Below, piece by piece: positions 334-60,277 of a DNA stretch of 64,000 bases. The notes beneath the pieces are model-generated. The model saw only the letters and a list, made by a program, of their open reading frames with translations. It made no database searches and was not told the DNA's origin. The number at the start of each line of letters is the position of its first letter. Position 1 is the stretch's first letter. The position numbers and the translations under genes are program-made. Source of the stretch: Raoultibacter phocaeensis (GTDB taxonomy: Bacteria; Actinomycetota; Coriobacteriia; Coriobacteriales; Eggerthellaceae); NCBI RefSeq assembly GCF_901411515.1, contig NZ_CABDUX010000002.1:62001-126000 (forward strand), written 5' to 3'.

Positions 334-495
334 ATGGAGTATGTTGAAATACTTGATTCCGATGCGTCTTTAGCGGGCTATTCAGCCATGTCTCATCTAT
401 TCAGGACTGTATCGCAACTATTAATTTCGGAATGCGTTGTATCTGGGATATGCAGGCACGGGGCGAAGTGTTGGGCAAATAGGATAAAGCTATGA
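334..495 (+). CDS. small hypothetical protein (53 aa) upstream of trlF-like gene
   Basis: This frame of 53 codons starts with ATG about 5 nt after an AGGAT element and ends with a TGA that overlaps the next gene's ATG as ATGA, the usual sign of translational coupling. The sequence starts MEYVEILDSDASLAGYSAM. I recognise no family. Being AT-rich like the gene it precedes, it would be part of the same transferred unit. The overlap is the main support; length and lack of homology keep confidence modest. Confidence 0.38.
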   Translation: MEYVEILDSDASLAGYSAMSHLFRTVSQLLISECVVSGICRHGAKCWANRIKL

Positions 496-2873
496 TTTCA
501 ACTAAGAAGATCGTCAATACACCTGTTAAAGTCGACTTCCATATCCATTCCGCCGCTTCCGCCCACAAGGACGGAGAAAAGGTCAAAGACGGAACGGCGG
601 ATAATACTAGTGTTCTTTTTAGCATGCTTGAAGAGAATCAAGTGAATATGGCCGCTATAACTGACCACGATATTTTCGACTACTCAGTATACAAGGCTTT
701 GCGGGCTAAAACAAAAAATGCTGTCCATCTGCACCGAGTTCTGCCAGGCGTCGAGTTTACTGTTTCCTTCAAAACTGACAGAGGCGATAGGCCTGTCCAT
801 ATTGTCACCTTGTTTGACGATACGAAGCAGGAACTTGTGCAATCCATCGCTAATGCGATTCCGCTCAAAAACGGAAAACCTGACTATGATATGAGCAATG
901 CTTTCAGCGAAGACAAGTACTGGGGCATCATTCGCGCAATCGGTCTCGACATCGTTGCGATTGCCCACCAGAAAGCATCCCCTGGTTCGGACCGGAAAAG
1001 AAAAAACGATGCAAATAGCGTTGGTGACGCGCTCTTCAACGAGTTCCTCTTTGTTGAGTACTTCGAGGCTTACGAATACAAAAACCGTCGGAATGAGCTA
1101 TTCAACAAAAATTACGCCTACTCGACAGACCAGCTTGAACAGCTACGATTCATTACGGGATCCGATTGTCACACTTGGAGTTCATACCCTGCATATGATG
1201 CCAGCTCTGACCCAGATCTTCCCTACTCCTACCTCAAGTGTTTGCCAACCTTCAAGGGCCTCGCTATGGCCGTGACAGACGTTTCTCGCATCAGGACTGT
1301 TCCGAGTTTCTTTAGCGGCTCTACAACAACGCTCGATGCAATTGAGCTGACCTTGAATGGTGCGGACGTAAGCATACCTTTATCGCCCGGAATAAACGCA
1401 ATCATTGGCGACAACTCGATAGGCAAGTCTTCTCTGTTGAATGCCATAAATGGCTATCGAGAAATTGGGGCCACAGTTCAGAAAGGGCAGTCAAGGTACC
1501 TTGAGGAGTCGGGTCTTGTCCTGAAAACCACCATTCCGGAAGATTACCTTTTGCAGTTCGACGGGCAGGATGCTATCAGGAAGAGTTTTGAGGGCTTGAG
1601 TGTGGGCAAGGCTAAAAAGCAGCTCGAAAAGCATTTCCCGGATCCCGTGAACCCGGATTCGTTCAAGAGTTTTGCAATGAACCAGTTTAAGAAGTTTCAT
1701 GCAGCCCTGAGAAAGTCGTGTAAGTACCAGGAGTCACTTGCAGCCCTAGGTGTATTCAAACTTCCTGAGCAACCGCCGTTGGGTGCACCTCAGAGTATAA
1801 CCTTTGATAAAAGCGTCAAACTAGACGATGTCTCATGTCATAATGGGCTCGTCAATGATGTCAAGAATGCTCGTATCCAGCTTGGAGGTGTCATCGAGCT
1901 TCATGAAGAGGCCATCCTGAAAGAAGATGAGCCGGACTTTGAAGCTGCGATAGCCGCTCTGGATCGTATCGTAAAACGCCATCAAACCATCGTTGATGAA
2001 ATAACCTTGGAAGCGCGCGTTGCCAACAAAGTGATTGAGGCTATAACTACTCGCGAGAACGAGCAGGATAAGGTCATTACCGATGCCCAGAAAGCGCAGG
2101 CTGAATTCTTGCGCGCTATTGACCGAGCCGGAAGCAGCCTTGCCAATGCGGTGATGAACGAACAGCGGCTTCTTAACTTCAGCTTCGACTTTAAGCCCCT
2201 AGAGATAACGCCTAACACTAACCCCGTTGGTGACTTACAATTCGTATGCAAACTTGGTATCGATGAGATAACGCCTGGTCTTTTATCCGAGCTTATCGAT
2301 GGTCTTATTGGCAAGAGGAAGGACCTCGATACGCTCACTTCCAGCTATGAAAGCGTCAAGGATGCTATTAATAACTACCCAGAAAATGAGGACGATCCTC
2401 TTGTGGCGTTAGAGGCAAAATTTGAGGTGGCTCTGGACGCAAAGCTCAAGGCGGTTAAAACAATCAACCGCGAGGATGATGATGTATTCGACGAACTTTC
2501 GCGAGGGTACAACGCGCAGATGTATTTTAAACTTATGGCCGACCGAAATGTTGGAGACGGAATCTATATCGTCGATCAACCAGAAGACCAAATATCGCAG
2601 CGAGCTATAAAACAAACGGTACTCAAGGAGTTTCGCGATATTGCTGGTGCCCGCCAGGTTATACTCATCACGCATAATCCCCAATTTGTAGTGAATCTTG
2701 ACGTCGACAACGTGATTTTTGTAGGCAAGAAGGATGGAAAGCTTTTTTTGAGGAGCGGCGCACTTGAGTACGAGTGCTCAGAATACGGCATACTGGAAAC
2801 TGTTGCCGAGAACATTGAAGGTGGCTTAGAAACCATCCAGAGGAGGATGAAGCGATATGAAAAAGCAAGTTAA
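492..2873 (+). CDS. TrlF-family protein: PHP phosphoesterase + AAA/ABC-type ATPase
   Basis: Predicted two-part enzyme of 793 aa. Residues 1 to about 265 form a PHP domain: HIHS near residue 17, ITDHD near 57, GVEF, and GSDCHTW near 225 supply the metal-binding His/Asp set. From about 290 it is an SMC/RecF-like ATPase: Walker A GDNSIGKSS near 305, a helical, probably coiled-coil middle (about 430-620), Walker B VDQPED near 691 and the H-loop ITHNPQ near 724. NCBI groups this arrangement as TrlF-family AAA-like ATPases; such PHP-ATPase fusions are commonly seen in defence islands, but the target here is unknown. It overlaps the following 99-aa gene by 17 nt. Codons are AT-richer than in the rest of the window, which suggests transfer. 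Confidence 0.8.
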   Translation: MISTKKIVNTPVKVDFHIHSAASAHKDGEKVKDGTADNTSVLFSMLEENQVNMAAITDHDIFDYSVYKALRAKTKNAVHLHRVLPGVEFTVSFKTDRGDRPVHIVTLFDDTKQELVQSIANAIPLKNGKPDYDMSNAFSEDKYWGIIRAIGLDIVAIAHQKASPGSDRKRKNDANSVGDALFNEFLFVEYFEAYEYKNRRNELFNKNYAYSTDQLEQLRFITGSDCHTWSSYPAYDASSDPDLPYSYLKCLPTFKGLAMAVTDVSRIRTVPSFFSGSTTTLDAIELTLNGADVSIPLSPGINAIIGDNSIGKSSLLNAINGYREIGATVQKGQSRYLEESGLVLKTTIPEDYLLQFDGQDAIRKSFEGLSVGKAKKQLEKHFPDPVNPDSFKSFAMNQFKKFHAALRKSCKYQESLAALGVFKLPEQPPLGAPQSITFDKSVKLDDVSCHNGLVNDVKNARIQLGGVIELHEEAILKEDEPDFEAAIAALDRIVKRHQTIVDEITLEARVANKVIEAITTRENEQDKVITDAQKAQAEFLRAIDRAGSSLANAVMNEQRLLNFSFDFKPLEITPNTNPVGDLQFVCKLGIDEITPGLLSELIDGLIGKRKDLDTLTSSYESVKDAINNYPENEDDPLVALEAKFEVALDAKLKAVKTINREDDDVFDELSRGYNAQMYFKLMADRNVGDGIYIVDQPEDQISQRAIKQTVLKEFRDIAGARQVILITHNPQFVVNLDVDNVIFVGKKDGKLFLRSGALEYECSEYGILETVAENIEGGLETIQRRMKRYEKAS

Positions 2874-29447: not shown

Positions 29448-29466
29448 AGAACAAATGTTCTATACT
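29448..29466 (+). promoter_or_regulatory. LexA-like palindrome overlapping a -10 box
   Basis: AGAACAAATGTTCT (29448-29461) has the GAAC-N4-GTTC core of the Gram-positive/actinobacterial LexA box, and its last base begins TATACT, a good -10 hexamer. A bound repressor would block the promoter of the flavin-binding gene 92 nt downstream. The flanking bases deviate from CGAAC...GTTCG. Confidence 0.35.
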
Positions 29467-29557
29467 TGGAAATGGCACGCATGCCATCGGGTGCTCAGGT
29501 GCCTGATTCGACAACGCGGCGGACCGCTTTTTGCGGGTCGCACAGGAAAGGGATGCT

Positions 29558-30007
29558 ATGGAACTTAACGTGGACGACTTCATTGAAACGGTGCGTACCG
29601 AAGAGATCATGTTTCTTGCGACGGCAGCAGGTGACGAAGTGTCGGTGAGGCCGGTGAGTCCGCTGATGGGCGAAGGCAACGTGGTGTACTTCTACACGAG
29701 CAAAGATTCGCGGAAGTACCGTCAGATGAAAGAGAATCCGGTTGCCGCCTTTGTCATTGGGGCGGCAGGCCGCTACCAGGCCGAAGGTACCGTGCGGTTT
29801 CTCGGAAGCGTGTTCAGCGAAGAGAACGAAGAGCTTAACGGGCAGTATAGGGCTAAGTACCGCGGTGCGTTCGAAGAGGCGGCACCAGGCGAGGATATGG
29901 AGTCGAACGAGTTCATCGCTTTTGACCTGAAAACGCTCAAGGGATGGATTTTCGATACGGAGAATCCCGAGATACCCATCGGCAAAGGCGAGCTCACATT
30001 CGCGTAG
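29558..30007 (+). CDS. pyridoxamine 5'-phosphate oxidase-family flavin-binding protein
   Basis: A 149-aa split-barrel protein (MELNVDDFIETVRTEEIMFL..., then VRPVSPLM, VYFYTSKDSRKYRQMKENP, AAFVIG). The pattern fits the PNPOx-like superfamily of small FMN- or F420-binding proteins; the substrate is unknown. ATG 29558 was chosen after AAAGGGATGCT. The upstream region contains a LexA-like box over the promoter. No partner gene is adjacent. Confidence 0.8.
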   Translation: MELNVDDFIETVRTEEIMFLATAAGDEVSVRPVSPLMGEGNVVYFYTSKDSRKYRQMKENPVAAFVIGAAGRYQAEGTVRFLGSVFSEENEELNGQYRAKYRGAFEEAAPGEDMESNEFIAFDLKTLKGWIFDTENPEIPIGKGELTFA

Positions 30008-50855: not shown

Positions 50856-53018
50856 CTATTCCAAACCCTCAACCAACCCGTCGAAATCGAGGAAGTCTTC
50901 GACGAACTGCTTGCGCAAAAGGGGATAGGGGACGTATTCGTTGTACTTCGCGGCTATCTCGATATCGTCGGGCAGGGGCAGTTCGTGCAGGTTGGGCTTC
51001 GATGCAAGGATGTCGGCTATCTCGCGTTCGAGTTCTTCTGCTGTGCCCCCGAAGCATACCTCGAGATAGACCGCGGTGCGCCAGGGCATCTTGCTTTTGA
51101 TTCCCCGTCCGAGCAGGCAGAAGTGCAGTGTGAAAAGCTGGCGCGTGCCCACCCAGGGAAAGACGGCGAAGGTGTGTTCGGAGAGCTGCGTGACCAGATT
51201 CTCGGTGATGGTGCTGCCTAAAGCGAGATAGCGGATTTCGGCGAGGCGCTCCTTGCAGCTGTCGCTGAGGTAGGGATACGACTCGTTGCCGCGAAGGATG
51301 CTGCGCATGGTGCGCACAAGTACGGTATGGAGCTCCGATTCGAAATCGACGTTCCAATCGACGACGGATATGCCGGGCACGCGCTTCACGAACAAAACCT
51401 TTGATTTCTCGTTCACGTCGAGTGTTTCCCAGGTGATGCCGGCAAGCGAGAAGCGCACACCGACCGGGTATATCTTATCGACCGTGCCTATGGGCTTGTT
51501 TTCGTCTTTGACAAGATAATACTCGGGTACGATGAACACCGTATAGAAATGGAAGTGATTCACGATCTTCTCGCCCACGCGCCCGATAATGAGGCCGCCT
51601 TGCTCCGTCTTTTGGATATGCTCGGTGGCGATGAGATGGTTGAGAAGCAGTTTGAAATCGTCTTGGCTGATACTCTTAAAGCTTCCGAGTGAAAGAACTT
51701 CCTGAGCGAGTTTGGCAGCCGAAAGCTCCCCGTTGCTCTTGAGCGTGCTCATGGTTTGGTGGTAGACGAGCGAGTAAGGGTGCTTTTGGGGCGGTATCGG
51801 CTCGATCCAACGGTGTTTGGTGTACAGTTGGATGATGGCTATGAGCCTGATGAAGGACCAGTTGATGGGACCGAGCTTGTCGGCAGCAGTTGCCTGGACA
51901 TCTTCGACGAACGTAAAGAGAAGCTGCGGCACCTGACCGCGTCTGCCGCAGCGGCCAAGGCGCTGGGCGAAGCTCGAAACGGTTGCGGGCGCTCCTATCT
52001 GCACTGCCTGGTCGAGTGAGCCGATGTCGATGCCGAGCTCGAGTGTGACGGTGGCTCCCGTCACGATCCGATCCTCCGATACCTTCATTTCATCTTCGGC
52101 CTGCTCGCGCAACTGGGCGGATACGTTGCCGTGGTGGACGCGATACACGTCGGGAGCCTTGTTCGCAAGTGCGATCTCGCGCAGGTTCGCCATGATGAAC
52201 TCGATCTCCTCGCGGGAATTCGCGAAGATGATCGTTTTCTTGTCGAGCGTCATTTTGAACAGGTACTCGAAGTGCGCGCGATCACCCGAATCGGCGTGCG
52301 TTGCGTCATCGTCTTGCGCTTTGACGAAGCGGTGCACGAACAGGCGGATGCTTCCGCTCTTGTCATCGGTAACAGGAGATATGCATTCGCGTCCCGAGCC
52401 GGTGTTGAGCCATCTTTCGGCAAGGCCGATGTCGCCGAGCGTGGCGGATAGCCCGATGCGGCGCGGAACGTTTCCGGTAAGCCGCTGCATCCGTTCGAGC
52501 AGGCTGAGCACCTGGATGCCGCGCGAGTCGCGCATGAAATGATGGACCTCGTCGATGATGACGTAGCGCAGATCGGAAAACATCTTGATTGAGGCCCCGC
52601 GCTTATTCATGAGCAAGCTTTCAAGCGATTCCGGCGTGATCTGCAGCACGCCTTCGGGCTTCTTCACGAGCGCGTTTTTCTTCGAGATCGATGCGTCGCC
52701 GTGCCATTTGCATACGGGGATATTGCCTTCGACAAGGATCTGTTCGAGTCGTTTGAACTGGTCGTTGATAAGCGCCTTCAGGGGGCTTATGTAAAGGATG
52801 CCCACCGATGACGAGGGGTGCTTTGCCAGGTCGGTGAGTACGGGAAGAAAAGCGGCTTCGGTTTTGCCTGAGGCCGTACCCGACGAGAGCAGGAGGTTGC
52901 ACTCGGTGTCGAAGATGACATCGCACGCGGCTACCTGTACAGCGCGAAGCTCGGTCCACTCGTTGGCGTAGATGTAGTCCTGGATGAAAGGCGCAAGCCT
53001 TCCGAACGCATCGCTCAT
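50856..53018 (-). CDS. BrxHI/Lhr-like DEAD/DEAH-box helicase
   Basis: A 720-aa superfamily 2 helicase. Motif I is SSGTASGKTEAAF near residue 42, motif II VIIDEVHHFMRD near 148, motif III LSATLG near 187, then NSREEIEFI near 262 and the second RecA lobe with TLELGIDIGSLDQAVQIG near 326 and QRLGRCGRRG near 350. The C-terminal 300 residues are a winged-helix and accessory region as in Lhr-like helicases. It overlaps the ATPase gene as ATGA. In type II BREX the homologue BrxHI accompanies BrxD; here it is paired with a BrxD-like protein but without PglX, PglY or PglZ. Confidence 0.85.
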   Translation of the reverse strand: MSDAFGRLAPFIQDYIYANEWTELRAVQVAACDVIFDTECNLLLSSGTASGKTEAAFLPVLTDLAKHPSSSVGILYISPLKALINDQFKRLEQILVEGNIPVCKWHGDASISKKNALVKKPEGVLQITPESLESLLMNKRGASIKMFSDLRYVIIDEVHHFMRDSRGIQVLSLLERMQRLTGNVPRRIGLSATLGDIGLAERWLNTGSGRECISPVTDDKSGSIRLFVHRFVKAQDDDATHADSGDRAHFEYLFKMTLDKKTIIFANSREEIEFIMANLREIALANKAPDVYRVHHGNVSAQLREQAEDEMKVSEDRIVTGATVTLELGIDIGSLDQAVQIGAPATVSSFAQRLGRCGRRGQVPQLLFTFVEDVQATAADKLGPINWSFIRLIAIIQLYTKHRWIEPIPPQKHPYSLVYHQTMSTLKSNGELSAAKLAQEVLSLGSFKSISQDDFKLLLNHLIATEHIQKTEQGGLIIGRVGEKIVNHFHFYTVFIVPEYYLVKDENKPIGTVDKIYPVGVRFSLAGITWETLDVNEKSKVLFVKRVPGISVVDWNVDFESELHTVLVRTMRSILRGNESYPYLSDSCKERLAEIRYLALGSTITENLVTQLSEHTFAVFPWVGTRQLFTLHFCLLGRGIKSKMPWRTAVYLEVCFGGTAEELEREIADILASKPNLHELPLPDDIEIAAKYNEYVPYPLLRKQFVEDFLDFDGLVEGLE

Positions 53019-54340
53019 AGCTCGAACTCCGCAAACTCGCTGTGGACATCTTCGTCGGTCAGGCCGCCCTTGGCCATCTCGAAACTGTTGCTGCCCAGAA
53101 CCGCCTGGATAGACGTTTCGGGGTTCTGATGGAGAATGCCGACAAGTTCGATGAAATCGCGGATGATCTCGCGCGGGGTAATGTGTGTATCGGCACCGAC
53201 GCGGTTGTACTCGACGGTGAGGAAATACACCAGATCGTCGTGATGAAGTACCGGCTCGTAGTCGTAGAGTTGCGCGTGGATATCACGGAGTTTCTCGATG
53301 AGCACGTACAACTCTTCCTGTGAGAGCATTTCGAGCCTGATGATGGGGGCGGTAAGATCGGTGCGTCCATCACCTGAGAAATGACCTTCAGTGAGGCGCG
53401 AACGGAGAGCCTCGTAACTGAAGATGCCCTTGTAGCGATCTTCGACGCACTGGGGTGTGCACCCCATGAGAAACCCGATGTGCTGCGCTTTTCCCTGCAA
53501 CGCGTCGTTGTACATGGTGAGGAGCTTTTCGTAGTTGTTCTGGCGTGAAATCGAATTGGGTATCTTGAAGATGTTCACCAGCTCGTCGACCATGACGAGC
53601 GTGCCCGAGTAACCCGCACCCACCATGAATGCGGCGAGGATCTTCAGGAAGTCGTACCAGGTTTCATCGGTGACGATCCAGTTGATGCCGAGATCGGCTT
53701 TTGCATCCTTGCGCGTAGCGTATTCGCCGCGAAACCATCGAAGCACGTTCGATTTCGTGAGGGCATCGTCTTCGCGGTAGGCTCGGTGGTACGCGGTGAG
53801 GGCGCGCGCGAACTCGAAGCCGTTCACCATGCCTTCGAGCTCGCCGGTTACCCGGTAGATGCGCTTCTCGACCAGGGCGTCGAACTCCGAGCTGCCAGGC
53901 TCGCATTCTTGGGCGACTGCCGATTGGATGCCCGAAATCCAGCGTTCGAGCACAAGCGGAAGCGCGCCCCCGTCGGGTTTGGATTTGACCGACACGTTGC
54001 GCACGAGTTCCTTGTACGTGGCAAGACCCTGCCCCTTGGTACCGGCAAAGCGGCGCTCGGGTGAAAGGTCCGCGTCCATCACGACGAAGCCTTTCGCGGT
54101 CGCATAGTTGCGGATGGTCTGCAGAAGAAAGCTCTTGCCCGCTCCGTATTTGCCCACGATGAAGCGAAACGATGCACCCCCGTCTTGGACGATGTCGATG
54201 TCGTGCAGGATCGCATCGATCTCGCGGGTTCGACCGACCGTTATATATTCGAGCCCAATGCGCGGCACGACGCCTCCCTTGAGCGCGTTCATGATCGTGT
54301 TGGCAACTCGTCTCGGCACCTGGTTTTCCATTTTATGCAT
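53015..54340 (-). CDS. BrxD-like P-loop ATPase (DUF2791)
   Basis: A 441-aa ATPase. RRVANTIMNALKGGVVPRIG near residue 9 and GRTREIDAIL near 36 lead to Walker A VGKYGAGKSFLLQTI near 62; Walker B is TLVMVDELVNIF near 253 and the sensor GFLMGCTPQCVED near 294. This matches the DUF2791/BrxD family. I start at ATG 54340, 6 nt after an AGGAAAG element; ATG 54331 is possible. It overlaps the TerB gene by 8 nt and the helicase by 4 nt, so all three are coupled. BrxD family members act in type II BREX; the role in this reduced set is unknown. Confidence 0.85.
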   Translation of the reverse strand: MHKMENQVPRRVANTIMNALKGGVVPRIGLEYITVGRTREIDAILHDIDIVQDGGASFRFIVGKYGAGKSFLLQTIRNYATAKGFVVMDADLSPERRFAGTKGQGLATYKELVRNVSVKSKPDGGALPLVLERWISGIQSAVAQECEPGSSEFDALVEKRIYRVTGELEGMVNGFEFARALTAYHRAYREDDALTKSNVLRWFRGEYATRKDAKADLGINWIVTDETWYDFLKILAAFMVGAGYSGTLVMVDELVNIFKIPNSISRQNNYEKLLTMYNDALQGKAQHIGFLMGCTPQCVEDRYKGIFSYEALRSRLTEGHFSGDGRTDLTAPIIRLEMLSQEELYVLIEKLRDIHAQLYDYEPVLHHDDLVYFLTVEYNRVGADTHITPREIIRDFIELVGILHQNPETSIQAVLGSNSFEMAKGGLTDEDVHSEFAEFEL

Positions 54341-56060
54341 CCATCGCTTTCCTGAGATCGTATTCGTAGTCTTCGTAGACAGAGATGCTGTCGTCGGTTT
54401 CCACGACTGCATCGCCTAGGGAATCCATGGCTTTCTCGTTGATGCCGTCGAGCAGTACTTCGAGCATGATCGCGCGGGTTTGGGCAACCTGCTTGACATC
54501 GCCACCTGCAAGAACCGCTTCGAGGGCCTCCCGTTCCGCTTCGGTGAGCGATAGGGCGAACCTTTGCCATGCGGTTTGCTGTTCGGTGCCGTGCGCTTCA
54601 GGGAAGGATGGGTCGGCAGGTGCGGTCGGGGGCGGAGTTGCCTCGACAGAAGACGCGGCGCGGATATCCTCAGCGTCGGGCACGACGAGCTTTTCTTGAG
54701 TGGAGAGCGCATCGGTGCGGATGCGCTTCAGGCTGTCGAGGTTGACCGAGACGCTTCTGAAGGTGTAGTGCTCGTAAAATTCGGTGCAGGCCTCTTCGAC
54801 AACGCGGGGTACCGATAGCCCTATCCGTTCAAAGCTGCCCTGGTCAACCGCTTTGAACGAATCGAGGTTGGCGGTAAGGCGGTGCTTGAACCGCACGGCT
54901 TTTCGCAGGTGCGCTTCGGTGGCCTTCATGAGATAGCCCGCAAGCTGCGGCCCTTGGGGGGCTAGCGCGACGCGTTTTGCCGTCCAGCGACCCGCCTCGC
55001 ACTCGTAAACTTCCTTTTCCGAGATGCGCACGGTTCGACGGGGCTGGGCAAGCGTGGGATAGAAGAGCGCTTTGCCAAACGGCGACCAGCGCGACGCGCG
55101 ACGCTCGGCTGAAAATACGGAATCCTCGAAGCGGCGCTTCTTTTCTGCAAACCTTTCGCGTAGTCGCGTGAGAACGAACCCGAAGCACTCGACGATCATG
55201 TCGCGGTGATCCTCGGTGAAGAACACCGACTTTTCGATGTCGTACGATGCGATGCGCGCATACAGCTCGAACGCTTCTGTGCCCTCGGTGCCGTAACAGA
55301 AGACGGTGGGGTAGTGCCTTTGGAGATTGTTCTGCAGCGCGAATTCCCGAAACGAAGTGTCGAGCGGGTAGTACACGCAGTAATCTTTGATCCAGCCAGG
55401 TACGTAGCGGTCGAGCACGGGAAGGTCAGCTCTGAGCGCAAACCATGTTGCGGTGAGTTTTTCTAGCCCGTCGAGAGGGCCATCTGCGCCGACGCCGTTG
55501 ATGAGCTCGTAGAGGTAGAGAAACGCAAACGACGTTGACGTTTCCTTGAAGACACCCTCGCGTGCAGCGGTGCGCCAGGTGAAATACGTTCGAAGCTGGC
55601 TGTAGTCCATTTTCTGATAGCGGGGATAGTAGCAGGATAGCGATGCGGCACCCTCGTAATCGTCGATAAAGCTTTCCATGAGCCGGGCCTGGCGGTAGAA
55701 CACCTCGGTTTTATCCATGCGGTACCACACGCCCTGCTGGGCGATATGGCGAAGTTCGCGGAAGGCTGCGCGCGTTGCGTCATCGTCGGGCTCGATCGCC
55801 TGTGCGACGGGGCGGCCGTAGACGTGCTGCACATCTTGATCGGCCTCGTTGCTGTGACCTCCTAAGCTGATTTCAGCAAAGTCGTCGAAAGTCGGTTCGG
55901 ATGTCTGGACGACGCACACCGTGCCAGGGGCGGGCTTCGGCGACATATCGCGGTGCGGCGGAATGGGGCAGGGTTTATAACCCTGATCGGAGTCGAGTCC
56001 GTATATCAGTTGTGCCGAGCCCACGCTTCTCCCGATCGCCGTTGTCCAGTAACCAAACAT
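54333..56060 (-). CDS. TerB_N/TerB_C domain protein
   Basis: A 575-aa soluble protein. Residues about 90-300 match TerB_N (MESFIDDYEGAASLSCYYPR, then MDYSQLRTYFTWRTAAREG and SFAFLYLYELINGVG). The last 80 residues match TerB_C (RAIMLEVLLDGINEKAMDSL, then GDAVVETDDSISVYEDYEYD). Between lie a charged region and a Pro/Ala-rich linker near 485. Comparative genomics ties these domains to tellurite-resistance-related stress systems. It is the first gene of the operon with a strong promoter whose -10 box is 10 nt from the ATG. MSPKPAPG near residue 39 is an alternative start. Confidence 0.85.
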   Translation of the reverse strand: MFGYWTTAIGRSVGSAQLIYGLDSDQGYKPCPIPPHRDMSPKPAPGTVCVVQTSEPTFDDFAEISLGGHSNEADQDVQHVYGRPVAQAIEPDDDATRAAFRELRHIAQQGVWYRMDKTEVFYRQARLMESFIDDYEGAASLSCYYPRYQKMDYSQLRTYFTWRTAAREGVFKETSTSFAFLYLYELINGVGADGPLDGLEKLTATWFALRADLPVLDRYVPGWIKDYCVYYPLDTSFREFALQNNLQRHYPTVFCYGTEGTEAFELYARIASYDIEKSVFFTEDHRDMIVECFGFVLTRLRERFAEKKRRFEDSVFSAERRASRWSPFGKALFYPTLAQPRRTVRISEKEVYECEAGRWTAKRVALAPQGPQLAGYLMKATEAHLRKAVRFKHRLTANLDSFKAVDQGSFERIGLSVPRVVEEACTEFYEHYTFRSVSVNLDSLKRIRTDALSTQEKLVVPDAEDIRAASSVEATPPPTAPADPSFPEAHGTEQQTAWQRFALSLTEAEREALEAVLAGGDVKQVAQTRAIMLEVLLDGINEKAMDSLGDAVVETDDSISVYEDYEYDLRKAMDA

Positions 56061-56070
56061 TCGTTCGCTG

Positions 56071-56100
56071 ATAGTACCTGAACGAACAGATGTTTGTCAA
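56071..56100 (-). promoter_or_regulatory. promoter of the TerB-BrxD-helicase operon, near-leaderless
   Basis: On the minus strand TTGACA (56100-56095), an 18-nt spacer and TACTAT (56076-56071) lie just before the ATG at 56060, only 10 nt past the -10 box. The mRNA would have at most a few untranslated bases. TTCGTT and AACGAA flank the -10 region as an inverted repeat, a possible operator. Confidence 0.6.
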
Positions 56101-56203: not shown

Positions 56204-59200
56204 TTAGTCTTGTGGAGGAATGATCGGCCAATCGTTGCCGGTGAGCTTCCAGGTGTTGAAATCGAGTGCATCGCCGTCGATTTCAATCTCCCGGATGCCG
56301 GTATCGTGCTTGCCGTTCGAGGTGGTCATGTAGTAGAGCCGTTTGCGGTTCGGATCGTCGATCTCGAAGATCGTGTCGCCGTACTTCTCGCTGTCGGCGC
56401 CCATCGCATCGAGCACGGTCGGTTGGAAATCCATATGGCTCACCGGCATATCGGATACAGCCAAGGGTTTGCGCTCGCCGGTTTCGTTGGCGGGTTTGAC
56501 GAGCATGATGGGGCTCGTGGTATCCCACACCATATCGGGGGTAATGTACCAGTAGCCGTGGTCGGCGGTTACGATGATCGTCGAAGAGTCGTACACGCCG
56601 AGTTCCTTCATCTGCTCGAGGTATTCGTTGACGATGGCGAGCGATCCGATCGCCTGCTGCTTGAACGAAGAACTGCTTTTGCCGACGTTGTTCCCGTTTT
56701 CGTCAAGGACATAGGGCGGATGGGCCCCCGCAAGATGTATGAAGCGAAATGCTCCCGCTTTCCCGTCATCCTCAAGGCTGAGTTTTTTGCTTTTCAGCTT
56801 CTGATGATAGGCGCCGTCGTTCATGCGGTATATAACGTTTGAATCCTCGCCCTCGTTGCTCACGAAGGTCATCTTGTCGTTCATTTCGTCAGTGTAGAAC
56901 CAAAATTGCGGCTTCAGCAGCCAGGGCATATCTCGATACAGTGCGCTTTGCGCGAGTATTTCTATGGTTCCTCGCACATCGATTTGCTTGTTTTCGATAG
57001 GGTGCAAATTGATCGTTTGTGAAGCAAGTTTTTGCTCCGATGGCATCGTGTAGTCGACGCCGAGGGAATCGCTGTATAGACCGATCGAGTATCCCGTATC
57101 GTATACGTCGCTCAAGAACGTACCCTGGCCGTACCGATCGCTGTAATACTGCTCATACGTTTCTCCGGGCCGGGGAGTGACATCGGTAAGGAGAAAAGGG
57201 ACGGCATAGCGTGTCGGTATCATCGATCCGGTGGAATTCTCGAAGAATGTGAAATTCTCGAAGGGGCGCATCAGATCAGGGTTCGTGTCGAAAACGTTTT
57301 GTAGATCGATGGTGTCGTACGTATCGAGAACGAATACTACCACGTTGTTTTCGGGGGATAATTCGAATAGGCCGTCTTCCGTGCATTCGATCTGGTCCTG
57401 CCTCGGAACAAATGAGATGTTTGACGCGGTAAAAAGGCTTGCGATGCCGACAGTTTGCACCACGATGAGTATGATGGCAACGGTTCCTGCAATCGTACGC
57501 CATAGCTTGGAGTTTCTCCTGCTCGCGATAATGGCTCCGACGATTAGTGCGAGCCATATGGCTGCGGTGGCAAACGAGACAGTTGAAAAGTCCTGCCATG
57601 GGACGGTCGAGCCATCTGCGGTCGGGAGCCCTTGGTTCATGAACATTGCCTGAAGGTAGCAGCATGTTCCTACGCTGACGATGGTGACAAGGGCGATAGT
57701 GAAGGCTCTTCCGTGAAGTGCCGAGGCGAGGAGGGCGCACCCTAATGCAAGGATGGCCGCAAATGCGATCATATACGAGCCTACATCTTGCAAGCCAAGT
57801 ATGAGACTCCCTGAGTTCGACGCGACGATTTCGAACGGTGCTACGACGAAAAGGCTATAGAAAAGAAATGCACAGGCAAGAAGAGCTTGACCAAAGCGAG
57901 CGCGCCAACGAGGGCCATCCTGCGCGGTGGACGCCCTTCGCCTTTCGCGTACTGTTTGGCTGGATTTGCCGAAGCGATAGTCTTGGTCTAAAGCCACATA
58001 GGCCCCGTTTTCGTCAACTCTTCTTCCGTCTACCACGCGGTGAATGTCGCCTTCGACAACCTTATGTGCATTCTCGTCGATCTTGAACATGGCAAAGAGC
58101 TTGCGTCTCGTTTTCCTGAAAACCACGCCGAGGACGGCCGAGAGCGCAACGGCCACGCCGGCGAGCGCCTGGATGGTGTAGGTCATAACCGAGGGGTCTA
58201 CGTACGCATAGGCGGGTTCTGCCATGAACGGCAGCGCAACAAGCGTTGCGAGAGCGGCCTCGGGCAGATGCGACGCTGCTGCCTTTGCAAGTTCGCGGCC
58301 GCGTTTCTTTTCAGGTCGCCGCTCCGCTGCGTCTGAAGAGCGCTTCTTGCCCGGATCGGACGGGGGCGTTGCCCCCTTCTTCGCTGCCTGCTTTTCGAGT
58401 AAACGCGTCAGGATGAACTCGCCGGCCACTTCGGCGCTGTGGCCGAGGTTGAACACGCTTTGTTTCGTGGCCGCCGCAATGCGGTCGTGCCACGCTTCGG
58501 GATTCGCGAGCATTTCGGCTACGGTATCGGGTAGCTGCTCAAGTCCGTCAAGCGGCAGCGAAACGCCGATTTCGTTGCGCAACGAAATGTCAGTGGGTAC
58601 GATGCCGAGCTCTTCGTAGTCGGGGTTGCACACTTTCATGGGCGTGTCGATGAAGATGCTCGGCTTGTTCGTGGAGAACGAGAACTCGTGGGCGACCGTT
58701 GACCAATCGGTGATGAGCACGTCCGACGTGAACACCGATACGTTCGATGAGAAATCGCCCTCGAAATATAGCTCGTCATCGGGCGCATCGCCGTAGCGGG
58801 CGAGAATGGCCTCCCAGCGGGGACGGTAGCGCTTCACGTATTCGGGATGCGGGCGTACGATGACGCGGTAACCGCGTCCGCGAAGCCCTCCGATGACCTC
58901 GTCGATGCACGAATCGAGGATGCAACCCTCTTGCCACGAGGGGGCGACGATCACGGTGGGGCGCTCGTTTTGTGCTTCAGCGCCGCTCGCGACGAGCGCA
59001 CGATAGGATTCGATGGTGCGGTCGAGCAGGTCGTAACCGTACGGTACGAGCGTTTTCGCGGGCGTTTTATAAAGCTCTTCGGCGCGGCGAAGCTCGTCTA
59101 CCTGATGCTGGCCTACGCACATAACGGTGTCGTATCCGTCGAACGCGCCCTTGTTCGGAGTCATGTGAGTTGAGGTCATGTGATGGAAGAAGAACACGTA

Positions 59201-60277
59201 TTCGGTGTCGTCGCATACATAGGAGCGCTTGATGTAGTAGTTGTCGAAGTCTTCGAGCGTGGCTGCGACCATCTGCGCATCCATCTTCATCATGAGCGTG
59301 ATGATGCGTTTAGGACCTATGTAGTAGGGCTGGATGCGCTCCTCGCGCTTCGCTATGCCGAATATCTGATCGTCGGGGTCGTTTGTGATGTAGTGGATGG
59401 TCATATCGGAGTTCTCAAGAAGCCACTCGATCGTGCCCTGAAAGTACTTGTAGAAGCCGCTCGATTCCGAATAGAACACGAGATGTTTGTTCACTACGTT
59501 GAAGAACCGCTTGTAATCGGCTTTCTCACGCTTGCCGAGCGGATTTCTTTGGTACCACTTCCGATCGTTCGCATCGAGCGCTTCGAGTTCTTCGAGCTCG
59601 GTACGGCTTGCTTCGAGGTCGGCGTAGTCGATGTACTTCTTCGGCTTGATGATCACGTTGCAGATAGCCTGGATCGCGACAGACATGAGGTTCGAGCACA
59701 CCCAGTAAAAACCCATGCCGGTTGCTACGAAGATACCGAGGATGAACGAGAGCCCGATCGAGAGCCCGTTCGTCATGTTCTTCTCGGCACGCGACTGCTC
59801 GCGCTGCAGCGGGTTGATGCGGTTTTGGGCGAATCCCATAACGATGGCCGAGAGCCCGGCGGCAAGCGGCATGAACCACGAAATGCCGCCGTCGGTCGCA
59901 GGCACCATGCCCAGAAGCTCGGTGCCCGGGGCGCCATAGTCGGTGATGCCGTGGATGACGTCGACGAGCCCGAACAGGATAAGTATTTGCACGGCGAGCG
60001 GCACGAGGCTTAAGAGAGGATGATAGTGCTTTTCCTTGAACATCTCATGCTGCTTATCGCCGATGGCCTCGCGGTCGCCGAAGTACTTGACCTTGATGCG
60101 GTTGATCGCCGGTATGAGCTGAACCATGACGATGGCGTTCTTCTGGCACCACAGAGACAAGGGCAGCAAGATGATCTTGACGATGACGGTAAAGAGAAGG
60201 ATGGCGATCCACCAGTTGCCGGTGAGCTGGTAGCACGGTTGCATGATGACGTTGAGCGCCTGAGCGAGCCATTCCAT
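56204..60277 (-). CDS. YidC/Oxa1 - TagF (CDP-glycerol glycerophosphotransferase) - sulfatase/LtaS-like fusion
   Basis: One uninterrupted frame of 1357 aa joins three enzymes. Residues about 1-230 are a YidC/Oxa1 insertase (WWIAILLFTVIVKIILLPLS near 22, HPLLSLVPLAVQILILFGLV near 85). Residues about 260-640 are a TagF-type glycerophosphotransferase (PSWQEGCILDSCIDEVIGGL near 448, VRPHPEYVKRYRP near 474, DVLITDWSTVAHEFSF near 519). After a charged linker and about five membrane helices (about 685-960), residues about 985-1330 are an alkaline-phosphatase-superfamily domain (VVFVLDTYDT, nucleophile region MIPTRYAVPFLLTD, TADHGYWY). GGAGGAACACGTACACA precedes the ATG. It may build, export and transfer a polyglycerolphosphate-like envelope polymer; that is inference. 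Confidence 0.85.
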   Translation of the reverse strand: MEWLAQALNVIMQPCYQLTGNWWIAILLFTVIVKIILLPLSLWCQKNAIVMVQLIPAINRIKVKYFGDREAIGDKQHEMFKEKHYHPLLSLVPLAVQILILFGLVDVIHGITDYGAPGTELLGMVPATDGGISWFMPLAAGLSAIVMGFAQNRINPLQREQSRAEKNMTNGLSIGLSFILGIFVATGMGFYWVCSNLMSVAIQAICNVIIKPKKYIDYADLEASRTELEELEALDANDRKWYQRNPLGKREKADYKRFFNVVNKHLVFYSESSGFYKYFQGTIEWLLENSDMTIHYITNDPDDQIFGIAKREERIQPYYIGPKRIITLMMKMDAQMVAATLEDFDNYYIKRSYVCDDTEYVFFFHHMTSTHMTPNKGAFDGYDTVMCVGQHQVDELRRAEELYKTPAKTLVPYGYDLLDRTIESYRALVASGAEAQNERPTVIVAPSWQEGCILDSCIDEVIGGLRGRGYRVIVRPHPEYVKRYRPRWEAILARYGDAPDDELYFEGDFSSNVSVFTSDVLITDWSTVAHEFSFSTNKPSIFIDTPMKVCNPDYEELGIVPTDISLRNEIGVSLPLDGLEQLPDTVAEMLANPEAWHDRIAAATKQSVFNLGHSAEVAGEFILTRLLEKQAAKKGATPPSDPGKKRSSDAAERRPEKKRGRELAKAAASHLPEAALATLVALPFMAEPAYAYVDPSVMTYTIQALAGVAVALSAVLGVVFRKTRRKLFAMFKIDENAHKVVEGDIHRVVDGRRVDENGAYVALDQDYRFGKSSQTVRERRRASTAQDGPRWRARFGQALLACAFLFYSLFVVAPFEIVASNSGSLILGLQDVGSYMIAFAAILALGCALLASALHGRAFTIALVTIVSVGTCCYLQAMFMNQGLPTADGSTVPWQDFSTVSFATAAIWLALIVGAIIASRRNSKLWRTIAGTVAIILIVVQTVGIASLFTASNISFVPRQDQIECTEDGLFELSPENNVVVFVLDTYDTIDLQNVFDTNPDLMRPFENFTFFENSTGSMIPTRYAVPFLLTDVTPRPGETYEQYYSDRYGQGTFLSDVYDTGYSIGLYSDSLGVDYTMPSEQKLASQTINLHPIENKQIDVRGTIEILAQSALYRDMPWLLKPQFWFYTDEMNDKMTFVSNEGEDSNVIYRMNDGAYHQKLKSKKLSLEDDGKAGAFRFIHLAGAHPPYVLDENGNNVGKSSSSFKQQAIGSLAIVNEYLEQMKELGVYDSSTIIVTADHGYWYITPDMVWDTTSPIMLVKPANETGERKPLAVSDMPVSHMDFQPTVLDAMGADSEKYGDTIFEIDDPNRKRLYYMTTSNGKHDTGIREIEIDGDALDFNTWKLTGNDWPIIPPQD

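What the first reader, a model, noticed from the sequence alone, without database searches (positions are those of the whole stretch)
50856..56100. Stand-alone TerB_N/TerB_C - BrxD-like ATPase - BrxHI-like helicase operon
Three overlapping genes combine a TerB_N/TerB_C protein, a DUF2791 ATPase and an Lhr-type helicase. The last two are known as BrxD and BrxHI in type II BREX, yet no methylase (PglX), PglY, PglZ or PglW gene is near; the flanks are a DUF4418 gene and an envelope gene. The TerB protein may replace the missing parts and act as the sensor or scaffold. Tight overlaps and one strong, near-leaderless promoter show a dedicated unit. I know of no characterised three-gene system of this make-up; a defence or DNA-damage role is inferred from family membership.
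Basis: partly seen in the sequence, partly recalled or inferred. Interest (0 to 1): 0.82.

Follow-up and report, generated by a model that had tools for sequence, protein, structure and literature searches.

The report
SOS-controlled Shango anti-phage operon
The three genes are a known bacterial anti-virus system called Shango, and its promoter here carries the same DNA-damage (SOS) switch sites as the bacterium's own lexA and recA genes, which suggests that this defence is turned on when DNA is damaged.

Summary
The triad is real, but it is not an unknown system. It is Shango (sngA-sngB-sngC), a published anti-phage system; PADLOC models match at 6e-63, 4e-178 and 1e-221. It is not a BREX remnant: SngB scores far below the curated BrxD cut-off, and the genome has no PglZ. 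Gene order A-B-C holds in about 60 of 80 related loci. The window is Raoultibacter; its SngB lies inside a Clostridia clade, apart from other Eggerthellaceae, so the operon was acquired horizontally.

New here is the control. Two LexA (SOS) boxes flank the -10 of the sngA promoter, laid out as at this genome's own lexA. The genome has only 13 exact matches to that motif; they include lexA, recA, ruvC and both sngA boxes. Boxes with at most one mismatch occur upstream of 31 of 75 related sngA genes, against 34 of 519 other genes, 3 of 91 sngB and 1 of 83 sngC. Five further loci instead encode a CI/LexA-like S24 repressor just upstream of sngA. SngA evolves fast (42% mean identity), SngB and SngC slowly (81% and 76%).

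Best model: DNA damage derepresses Shango; SngA is the sensor; SngB (ORC/Cdc6-like) loads the SngC helicase. Regulation is well supported in silico; the biochemical steps are inferred.

The parts
50856..53018 (-). sngC: 720-aa SF2 (Lhr/Ski2/BrxHI-type) DEVH helicase
   Evidence: PADLOC SngC 1.2e-221, BrxHI 1.2e-118; DEAD + Helicase_C; motif I GTASGKT (K52) and motif II DEVH (156-159) conserved
53015..54331 (-). sngB: 438-aa AAA+ ATPase (BrxC/BrxD family, ORC/Cdc6-like fold); start by homology at ATG 54331, ORF extends to 54412
   Evidence: PADLOC SngB 4.4e-178 against BrxD 3.6e-43; NCBIfam BrxD 150 bits, cut-off 350; fold like Cdc6/Orc1 2qby, Z 14.1 over 254 residues; start by alignment
54333..56024 (-). 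sngA: about 563-aa TerB_N + TerB_C protein; start by homology at GTG 56024 (longest ORF begins at ATG 56060)
   Evidence: PADLOC SngA 6.2e-63; Pfam TerB_N 7.6e-27, TerB_C 6.9e-20; start by alignment with R. timonensis; model with mean pLDDT 84 and a C-terminal winged helix
56054..56067 (-). LexA (SOS) box CGAACGAATGTTTG, just downstream of the -10 over the expected transcription start
   Evidence: one of 13 exact matches in the genome; same motif at lexA and recA
56083..56096 (+). LexA (SOS) box CGAACAGATGTTTG, between -35 and -10
   Evidence: identical to the box before recA of R. timonensis; 29 bp from the other sngA box, against 28-29 bp between boxes at lexA
56071..56100 (-). sngA promoter: -35 TTGACA (56100-56095), 18-nt spacer, -10 TACTAT (56076-56071)
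   Evidence: a consensus match, alone no more frequent than in shuffles; kept in R. timonensis as TTGACA...TATACTAT
56028..56033 (-). Shine-Dalgarno-like GGGAGA before the proposed GTG start of sngA
   Evidence: read from the sequence; start by alignment

Best explanation
The operon is a Shango anti-phage system of the short-SngA, Gram-positive branch, gained by Raoultibacter from a Clostridia-like source and placed under the host's LexA/SOS repressor. Proposed working: in unstressed cells LexA sits on two boxes flanking the -10 and keeps sngABC low. When phage replication, a mobile element or other damage makes RecA-coated ssDNA, LexA cleaves itself and sngABC is induced. SngA, the fast-evolving partner with a TerB_N domain and a C-terminal winged helix, recognises the invader (DNA structure or phage protein). 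SngB, an ORC/Cdc6-type AAA+ ATPase, assembles and loads SngC. SngC, a Lhr/BrxHI-type SF2 helicase, translocates on the target DNA and blocks its replication or exposes it to host nucleases; Pfam found no nuclease domain in the three proteins. Shown here (in silico): identity, intactness, conserved gene order, horizontal origin, LexA boxes with lexA/recA as positive controls, SngB fold, SngA winged helix (weak match), rate contrast. Inferred: LexA binding, induction, all biochemical steps and the antiviral effect in this host.
For: Identity: PADLOC SngA/B/C are the top hits; anti-phage activity of homologous operons is published (PMC10250203). Gene order: A-B-C in about 60 of 80 loci. SOS control: exact LexA boxes occur 13 times in 3.86 Mb; they include lexA, recA, ruvC and the sngA promoter twice. 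All 11 Shango-bearing Eggerthellaceae genomes searched have the motif 2-3 times before lexA. Boxes with at most one mismatch: 31/75 sngA upstreams, 34/519 other genes (Fisher p = 5e-14), 3/91 sngB, 1/83 sngC. Strict boxes: 16/65 against 6/437 in the wide set and 5/10 against 4/82 in other Eggerthellaceae; reversed, swapped and re-spaced control motifs are not enriched. 20 of 21 strict hits have a -10-like hexamer nearby. Five box-less loci carry an XRE-S24 repressor 22-123 bp upstream on the same strand. Rates: SngA 42%, SngB 81%, SngC 76% mean identity over the same 50 loci. Fold: SngB like Cdc6/Orc1, Z 14.1. Horizontal gain: window SngB inside a 12-row clade (support 100) of otherwise Clostridia, other Eggerthellaceae in a separate clade (98).
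Against: No experiment. Immediate neighbours of Gram-positive Shango loci are mostly housekeeping genes, with one Cas3 among 115 flanking genes, so defence-island support is weak for this branch. The Clostridia closest to Raoultibacter (L037-L044) lack boxes, so SOS control is not universal. Five plasmid copies were checked and only the Paenibacillus one has a box. Related loci are not independent, and starts were taken as longest ORFs. The winged-helix match of SngA is weak (Z up to 6.5) and the SngB model is of moderate confidence (pLDDT 71).
Confidence: 0.72

Rival explanations
1. In Gram-positive hosts this SngABC branch is mainly an SOS-regulon genome-maintenance module (loading a helicase onto damaged or stalled DNA); any anti-phage effect is secondary.
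For: LexA boxes shared with lexA, recA and ruvC; mostly housekeeping neighbours; very conserved SngB and SngC; a gene read as SRAP-like upstream of sngA in L105 and a RecQ-like helicase between sngA and sngB in L055.
Against: Patchy distribution (13 strong hits in 138 genomes of the family) and cross-phylum transfer are odd for maintenance; fast SngA evolution fits a sensor in an arms race; homologous operons protect against phages (PMC10250203).
Confidence: 0.2
2. A degenerate or minimal type II BREX locus in which a TerB protein replaces the missing PglX/PglZ/PglW parts.
For: SngB and SngC are homologous to BrxD and BrxHI, and a published SF2 helicase tree puts SngC beside BrxHI (PMC12278908).
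Against: Dedicated SngA/B/C models score far higher; BrxD 150 bits against a cut-off of 350; no PglZ in the genome; no BREX family among 115 flanking genes of relatives; the triad is stable as a triad in dozens of loci.
Confidence: 0.02
3. The operon is Shango, but the LexA-like boxes over the promoter are chance or serve another regulator, and expression is constitutive.
For: The sigma-70 scan alone finds no excess over shuffles; the closest Clostridia loci have no box.
Against: Two exact boxes 29 bp apart around the -10, kept in R. timonensis, in a genome with 13 such sites that include lexA and recA; enrichment across relatives with negative controls.
Confidence: 0.06

Closest known systems
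Shango (SngABC) of Pseudomonas aeruginosa PA14 and E. coli
   Same: Same three families in the same order A-B-C; PADLOC models match all three.
   Different: Window SngA lacks the TerB core PF05099 (0 of 62 relatives; present in Klebsiella, Roseobacter and Mesorhizobium SngA); SngB about 40% and SngC about 31% identical to the Klebsiella copy; LexA boxes in Gram-positive promoters, none seen in the four proteobacterial plasmid copies examined.
Type II BREX BrxD/BrxHI dyad
   Same: Homologous ATPase-helicase pair; a loader role of BrxD for BrxHI has been proposed (PMC12839542).
   Different: No PglX/PglZ/PglW/BrxC; an SngA protein instead; sequence closer to Sng than to Brx models.
Immune operons under DNA-damage regulators (CapW/BrxR, CapH+CapP, CapK/CapS)
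   Same: Immune genes switched on by DNA damage through a dedicated repressor (PMC13373217); the XRE-S24 repressor found upstream of five Shango loci is of this general kind.
   Different: In Raoultibacter the host's global LexA appears to do the job, with no dedicated regulator in the operon.
Druantia III DruE and Hachiman HamB
   Same: SF2 helicases in defence that act on ssDNA-containing or damaged DNA (PMC13192584; PMC12278908).
   Different: DruE and HamAB carry or pair with nucleases; no nuclease domain was recognised in SngABC.

Membership tests
Shango | Three-gene operon: TerB-family protein, AAA+ ATPase, SF2 helicase, order A-B-C | tested here: met
   order conserved in about 60 of 80 loci
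Shango | Best match to the SngA, SngB and SngC models rather than Brx models | tested here: met
   SngA 6e-63 as only hit; SngB 591 against BrxD 146 bits; SngC 736 against BrxHI 395 bits
Shango | Anti-phage activity | not testable with these tools
   shown for PA14 and E. coli operons in PMC10250203, not for this one
Shango, TerB-core sub-architecture (seen in proteobacterial SngA; not taken as defining) | TerB core domain PF05099 between TerB_N and TerB_C | tested here: not met
   (0 of 62); present in three of four proteobacterial SngA tested. The 528-position PADLOC SngA model aligns to the window protein over positions 68-525 without it
Type II BREX | PglZ/BrxZ | tested here: not met
   no PF08665 match in the whole genome
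Type II BREX | BrxD equivalog score | tested here: not met
   NF033438: 149.9 bits, cut-off 350
Type II BREX | PglX and PglW adjacent | tested here: not met
   adjacent genes are DUF4418 and YidC/sulfatase; PADLOC scan of 58 window ORFs showed no BREX family among the 25 of 31 families listed
LexA/SOS regulon of the host | Operator matching the host's own LexA box, placed over the core promoter | tested here: met
LexA/SOS regulon of the host | LexA binding and induction by DNA damage | not testable with these tools
   needs EMSA/footprint and RNA measurement
ORC/Cdc6-clade AAA+ (SngB) | Initiator-type AAA+ fold | tested here: met
   archaeal and eukaryotic ORC/Cdc6 lead the VIA list (2qby Z 14.1, 1w5t 13.8; TnsC 12.8); model pLDDT 71

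The most novel reading that the evidence does not exclude
Across Gram-positive bacteria Shango is a DNA-damage-induced system: its expression is wired either to the host LexA or to its own operon-encoded LexA/CI-like repressor, so it responds to the genome stress of infection (or to prophage and element induction) rather than standing guard constitutively, and it may double as an SOS genome-maintenance module.
Probability: 0.5. Interest if true: 0.68.

Novelty: new variant of a known kind. Interest (0 to 1): 0.52.

Why it matters
Shango's trigger and mechanism are listed as unknown (PMC12926258). Linking it to LexA, and in other loci to a dedicated S24 repressor, says when the system is on, gives a lab handle (mitomycin C, lexA mutants), and joins Shango to the DNA-damage-regulated immune operons. 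The contrast between a fast-evolving SngA and a nearly frozen SngB-SngC pair points to which subunit senses and which pair acts. No paper found in the held library links Shango to LexA control (the one paper that holds both words, PMC13216270, was not read); the library is partial and the original E. coli report was not held, so priority is not proven.

Tried and rejected
BREX remnant: rejected by PglZ absence and model scores. Near-leaderless start: rejected by alignment with R. timonensis. Recurrent accessory gene in the operon: genes inserted between A, B and C in about 20 loci share no common family on inspection. LexA-adjacent neighbourhood: the S24 neighbours proved to be XRE-S24 repressors, not LexA. 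E. coli-type or alpha-type LexA boxes upstream of proteobacterial plasmid Shango: none seen. Solved relatives: none for SngA or SngB by sequence; SngC hits Lhr-type structures 5v9x and 7lhl. Foldseek gave no significant match for SngA in PDB or viral models, so the fold of TerB_N (residues 95-457) remains unassigned. Defence island: 58 ORFs of the window showed only weak or housekeeping-like PADLOC matches; QatD is probably TatD and E1-E2 probably ThiF/MoeB.
Full report
Observation. Three minus-strand ORFs lie at 50856-53018, 53015-54412 and 54333-56060. Pfam gives DEAD + Helicase_C, BrxC_BrxD (PF10923), and TerB_N + TerB_C. PADLOC names them SngC (1.2e-221), SngB (4.4e-178) and SngA (6.2e-63); the Brx models are clearly second (BrxHI 1.2e-118, BrxD 3.6e-43), and the curated NCBIfam BrxD model scores 150 against a cut-off of 350 bits. 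This is the Shango system. Johnson et al. 2023 (PMC10250203) showed a three-gene TerB-like/ATPase/helicase operon from PA14 that lowers plating of several phages by 10-100-fold and protects liquid cultures, and cite the E. coli report. The genome has no PglZ, so BREX is excluded.

Gene starts and promoter. Alignment with Raoultibacter timonensis places the sngA start at GTG 56024 with a GGGAGA Shine-Dalgarno; the ATG at 56060 falls inside an operator. SngB starts at 54331, one base after the sngA stop, and sngB/sngC overlap by ATGA. The promoter TTGACA-18-TACTAT therefore has a leader of about 40 nt and is not near-leaderless.

Relatives. A genome-collection scan gave 80 loci, mostly Clostridia and Oscillospiraceae MAGs. 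SngA, SngB and SngC lie in that order in about 60 of them; most of the others are cut by contig ends, and some carry unrelated inserted genes. In the window's family 13 of 138 genomes have a strong SngB. In an SngB tree the two Raoultibacter proteins lie in a 12-row clade (support 100) whose other members are Clostridia, while 11 other Eggerthellaceae form their own clade (98); Coriobacteriia, Chloroflexota and Planctomycetota MAG copies are also scattered among Bacillota. The operon moves between phyla. On plasmids 690 records match SngB, 449 of them Klebsiella; those opened mostly carry the triad, once beside CBASS genes and once beside an ATPase plus UvrD-helicase pair.

SOS control. The sngA promoter carries CGAACAGATGTTTG (56083-56096, + strand) and CGAACGAATGTTTG (56054-56067, - strand), 29 bp apart and flanking the -10. 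R. timonensis keeps the arrangement. The pattern CGAACNNNYGTTYG occurs 13 times in the 3.86-Mb genome: before lexA, before recA, before ruvC, before a short-chain dehydrogenase gene, twice at sngA, and otherwise inside ORFs or with G+C-rich centres. The genome's own lexA has three boxes, the first two 28 bp apart flanking its -10 TATACT, the same layout as sngA. In all 11 Shango-bearing Eggerthellaceae genomes searched, lexA has two or three such boxes, and R. timonensis recA has exactly the box CAAACATCTGTTCG found at the window's sngA.

Across relatives, strict boxes occur in -200..+60 of 16 of 65 sngA genes against 6 of 437 other genes of the same loci, and 5 of 10 against 4 of 82 in other Eggerthellaceae; control motifs (reversed, halves swapped, permuted, spacing 3 or 5) are not enriched. 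Allowing one mismatch: sngA 31/75, sngB 3/91, sngC 1/83, other genes 34/519 (p = 5e-14). In 20 of 21 strict cases a -10-like hexamer is near. Five loci with no LexA box (L057, L065, L070, L081, L093) have a gene for an XRE-HTH + Peptidase_S24 repressor 22-123 bp upstream of sngA on the same strand. It is the largest homologous group of immediately upstream genes. Its sequences keep an Ala-Gly pair (PVSAG) and Ser and Lys candidates (SGxSM; KKLG), as expected of the autocleavable LexA/CI family (my reading, from knowledge of that family). So damage control appears to have been reached by two routes. The Clostridia closest to Raoultibacter (L037-L044) have neither, so the two boxes of Raoultibacter probably arose after transfer; this is inference.

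Parts. Over the same 50 loci the mean pairwise identity is 42% for SngA, 81% for SngB and 76% for SngC; between the two Raoultibacter species it is 53, 86 and 84%. SngA is thus the likely specificity or sensor subunit (inference). SngA models well (mean pLDDT 84; residues 1 to about 90 disordered) and ends in a winged helix (residues about 497-575; best matches LysR and CodY DNA-binding domains, Z up to 6.5, a weak match). Its TerB_N part has no assigned fold here. The TerB core PF05099 is missing in 62 of 62 relatives but present in three of four proteobacterial SngA tested. SngB resembles ORC/Cdc6 initiators (2qby, Z 14.1) and TnsC (Z 12.8), which fits a proposed helicase-loading role of its BREX cousin BrxD (PMC12839542). 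SngC has all helicase motifs; the nearest solved sequences are Lhr-type helicases, and a published helicase tree groups SngC with BrxHI, DruE and DpdJ (PMC12278908).

Mechanism. Damage or infection raises RecA-ssDNA, LexA is cleaved, sngABC is induced; SngA marks the target; SngB loads SngC; SngC disrupts the target's replication or passes it to host nucleases. Only the first link (operator sites) has direct sequence evidence here. The main rival, a maintenance function, draws support from housekeeping neighbours and SOS membership; patchiness, transfer and the published phage data speak for defence.

Verdict. Known system, real and intact; the new parts are the SOS wiring seen across many Gram-positive loci, the alternative S24 repressor, and the SngA against SngB/SngC rate contrast. 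The literature library is partial: no paper found in it links Shango with LexA control.

Noticed in passing
window 56204-60277 (-): A 1357-aa ORF joins a YidC-like insertase, a CDP-glycerol glycerophosphotransferase-like part and a sulfatase-like part; in R. timonensis the same region holds separate ORFs and extra copies (L034 13124-18927).
   Followed up: partly
window 29449-29460: Another perfect LexA-like box core (GAACAAATGTTC) lies just upstream of the small gene at 29531-30007, a possible further SOS gene.
   Followed up: no
G000:C1:65508-65521: Exact LexA box CGAACATATGTTTG just before a short-chain dehydrogenase gene.
   Followed up: no
L057, L065, L070, L081, L093 (upstream of sngA): XRE-S24 autocleavable-type repressor gene directly before sngA in loci that lack LexA boxes.
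   Followed up: yes
L105 431-1069; L055 5002-6861: A gene read as SRAP-like (MCGRY start, SOS-associated) just upstream of sngA, and a RecQ-like helicase gene between sngA and sngB.
   Followed up: no
window 492-2870 (+): 793-aa protein with a PHP-like N terminus (DFHIHS) and an AAA_21 ATPase match, with a weak hit to the PADLOC candidate PDC-M49A; could be another defence gene.
   Followed up: no
plasmids collection: SngB relatives on 690 plasmid records, 449 Klebsiella and 144 Salmonella; 542 of the 690 are predicted conjugative.
   Followed up: partly
L055, L056, L071, L073: An aspartate carbamoyltransferase gene lies directly upstream of sngA in four Oscillospiraceae loci, a conserved local neighbourhood.
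   Followed up: no
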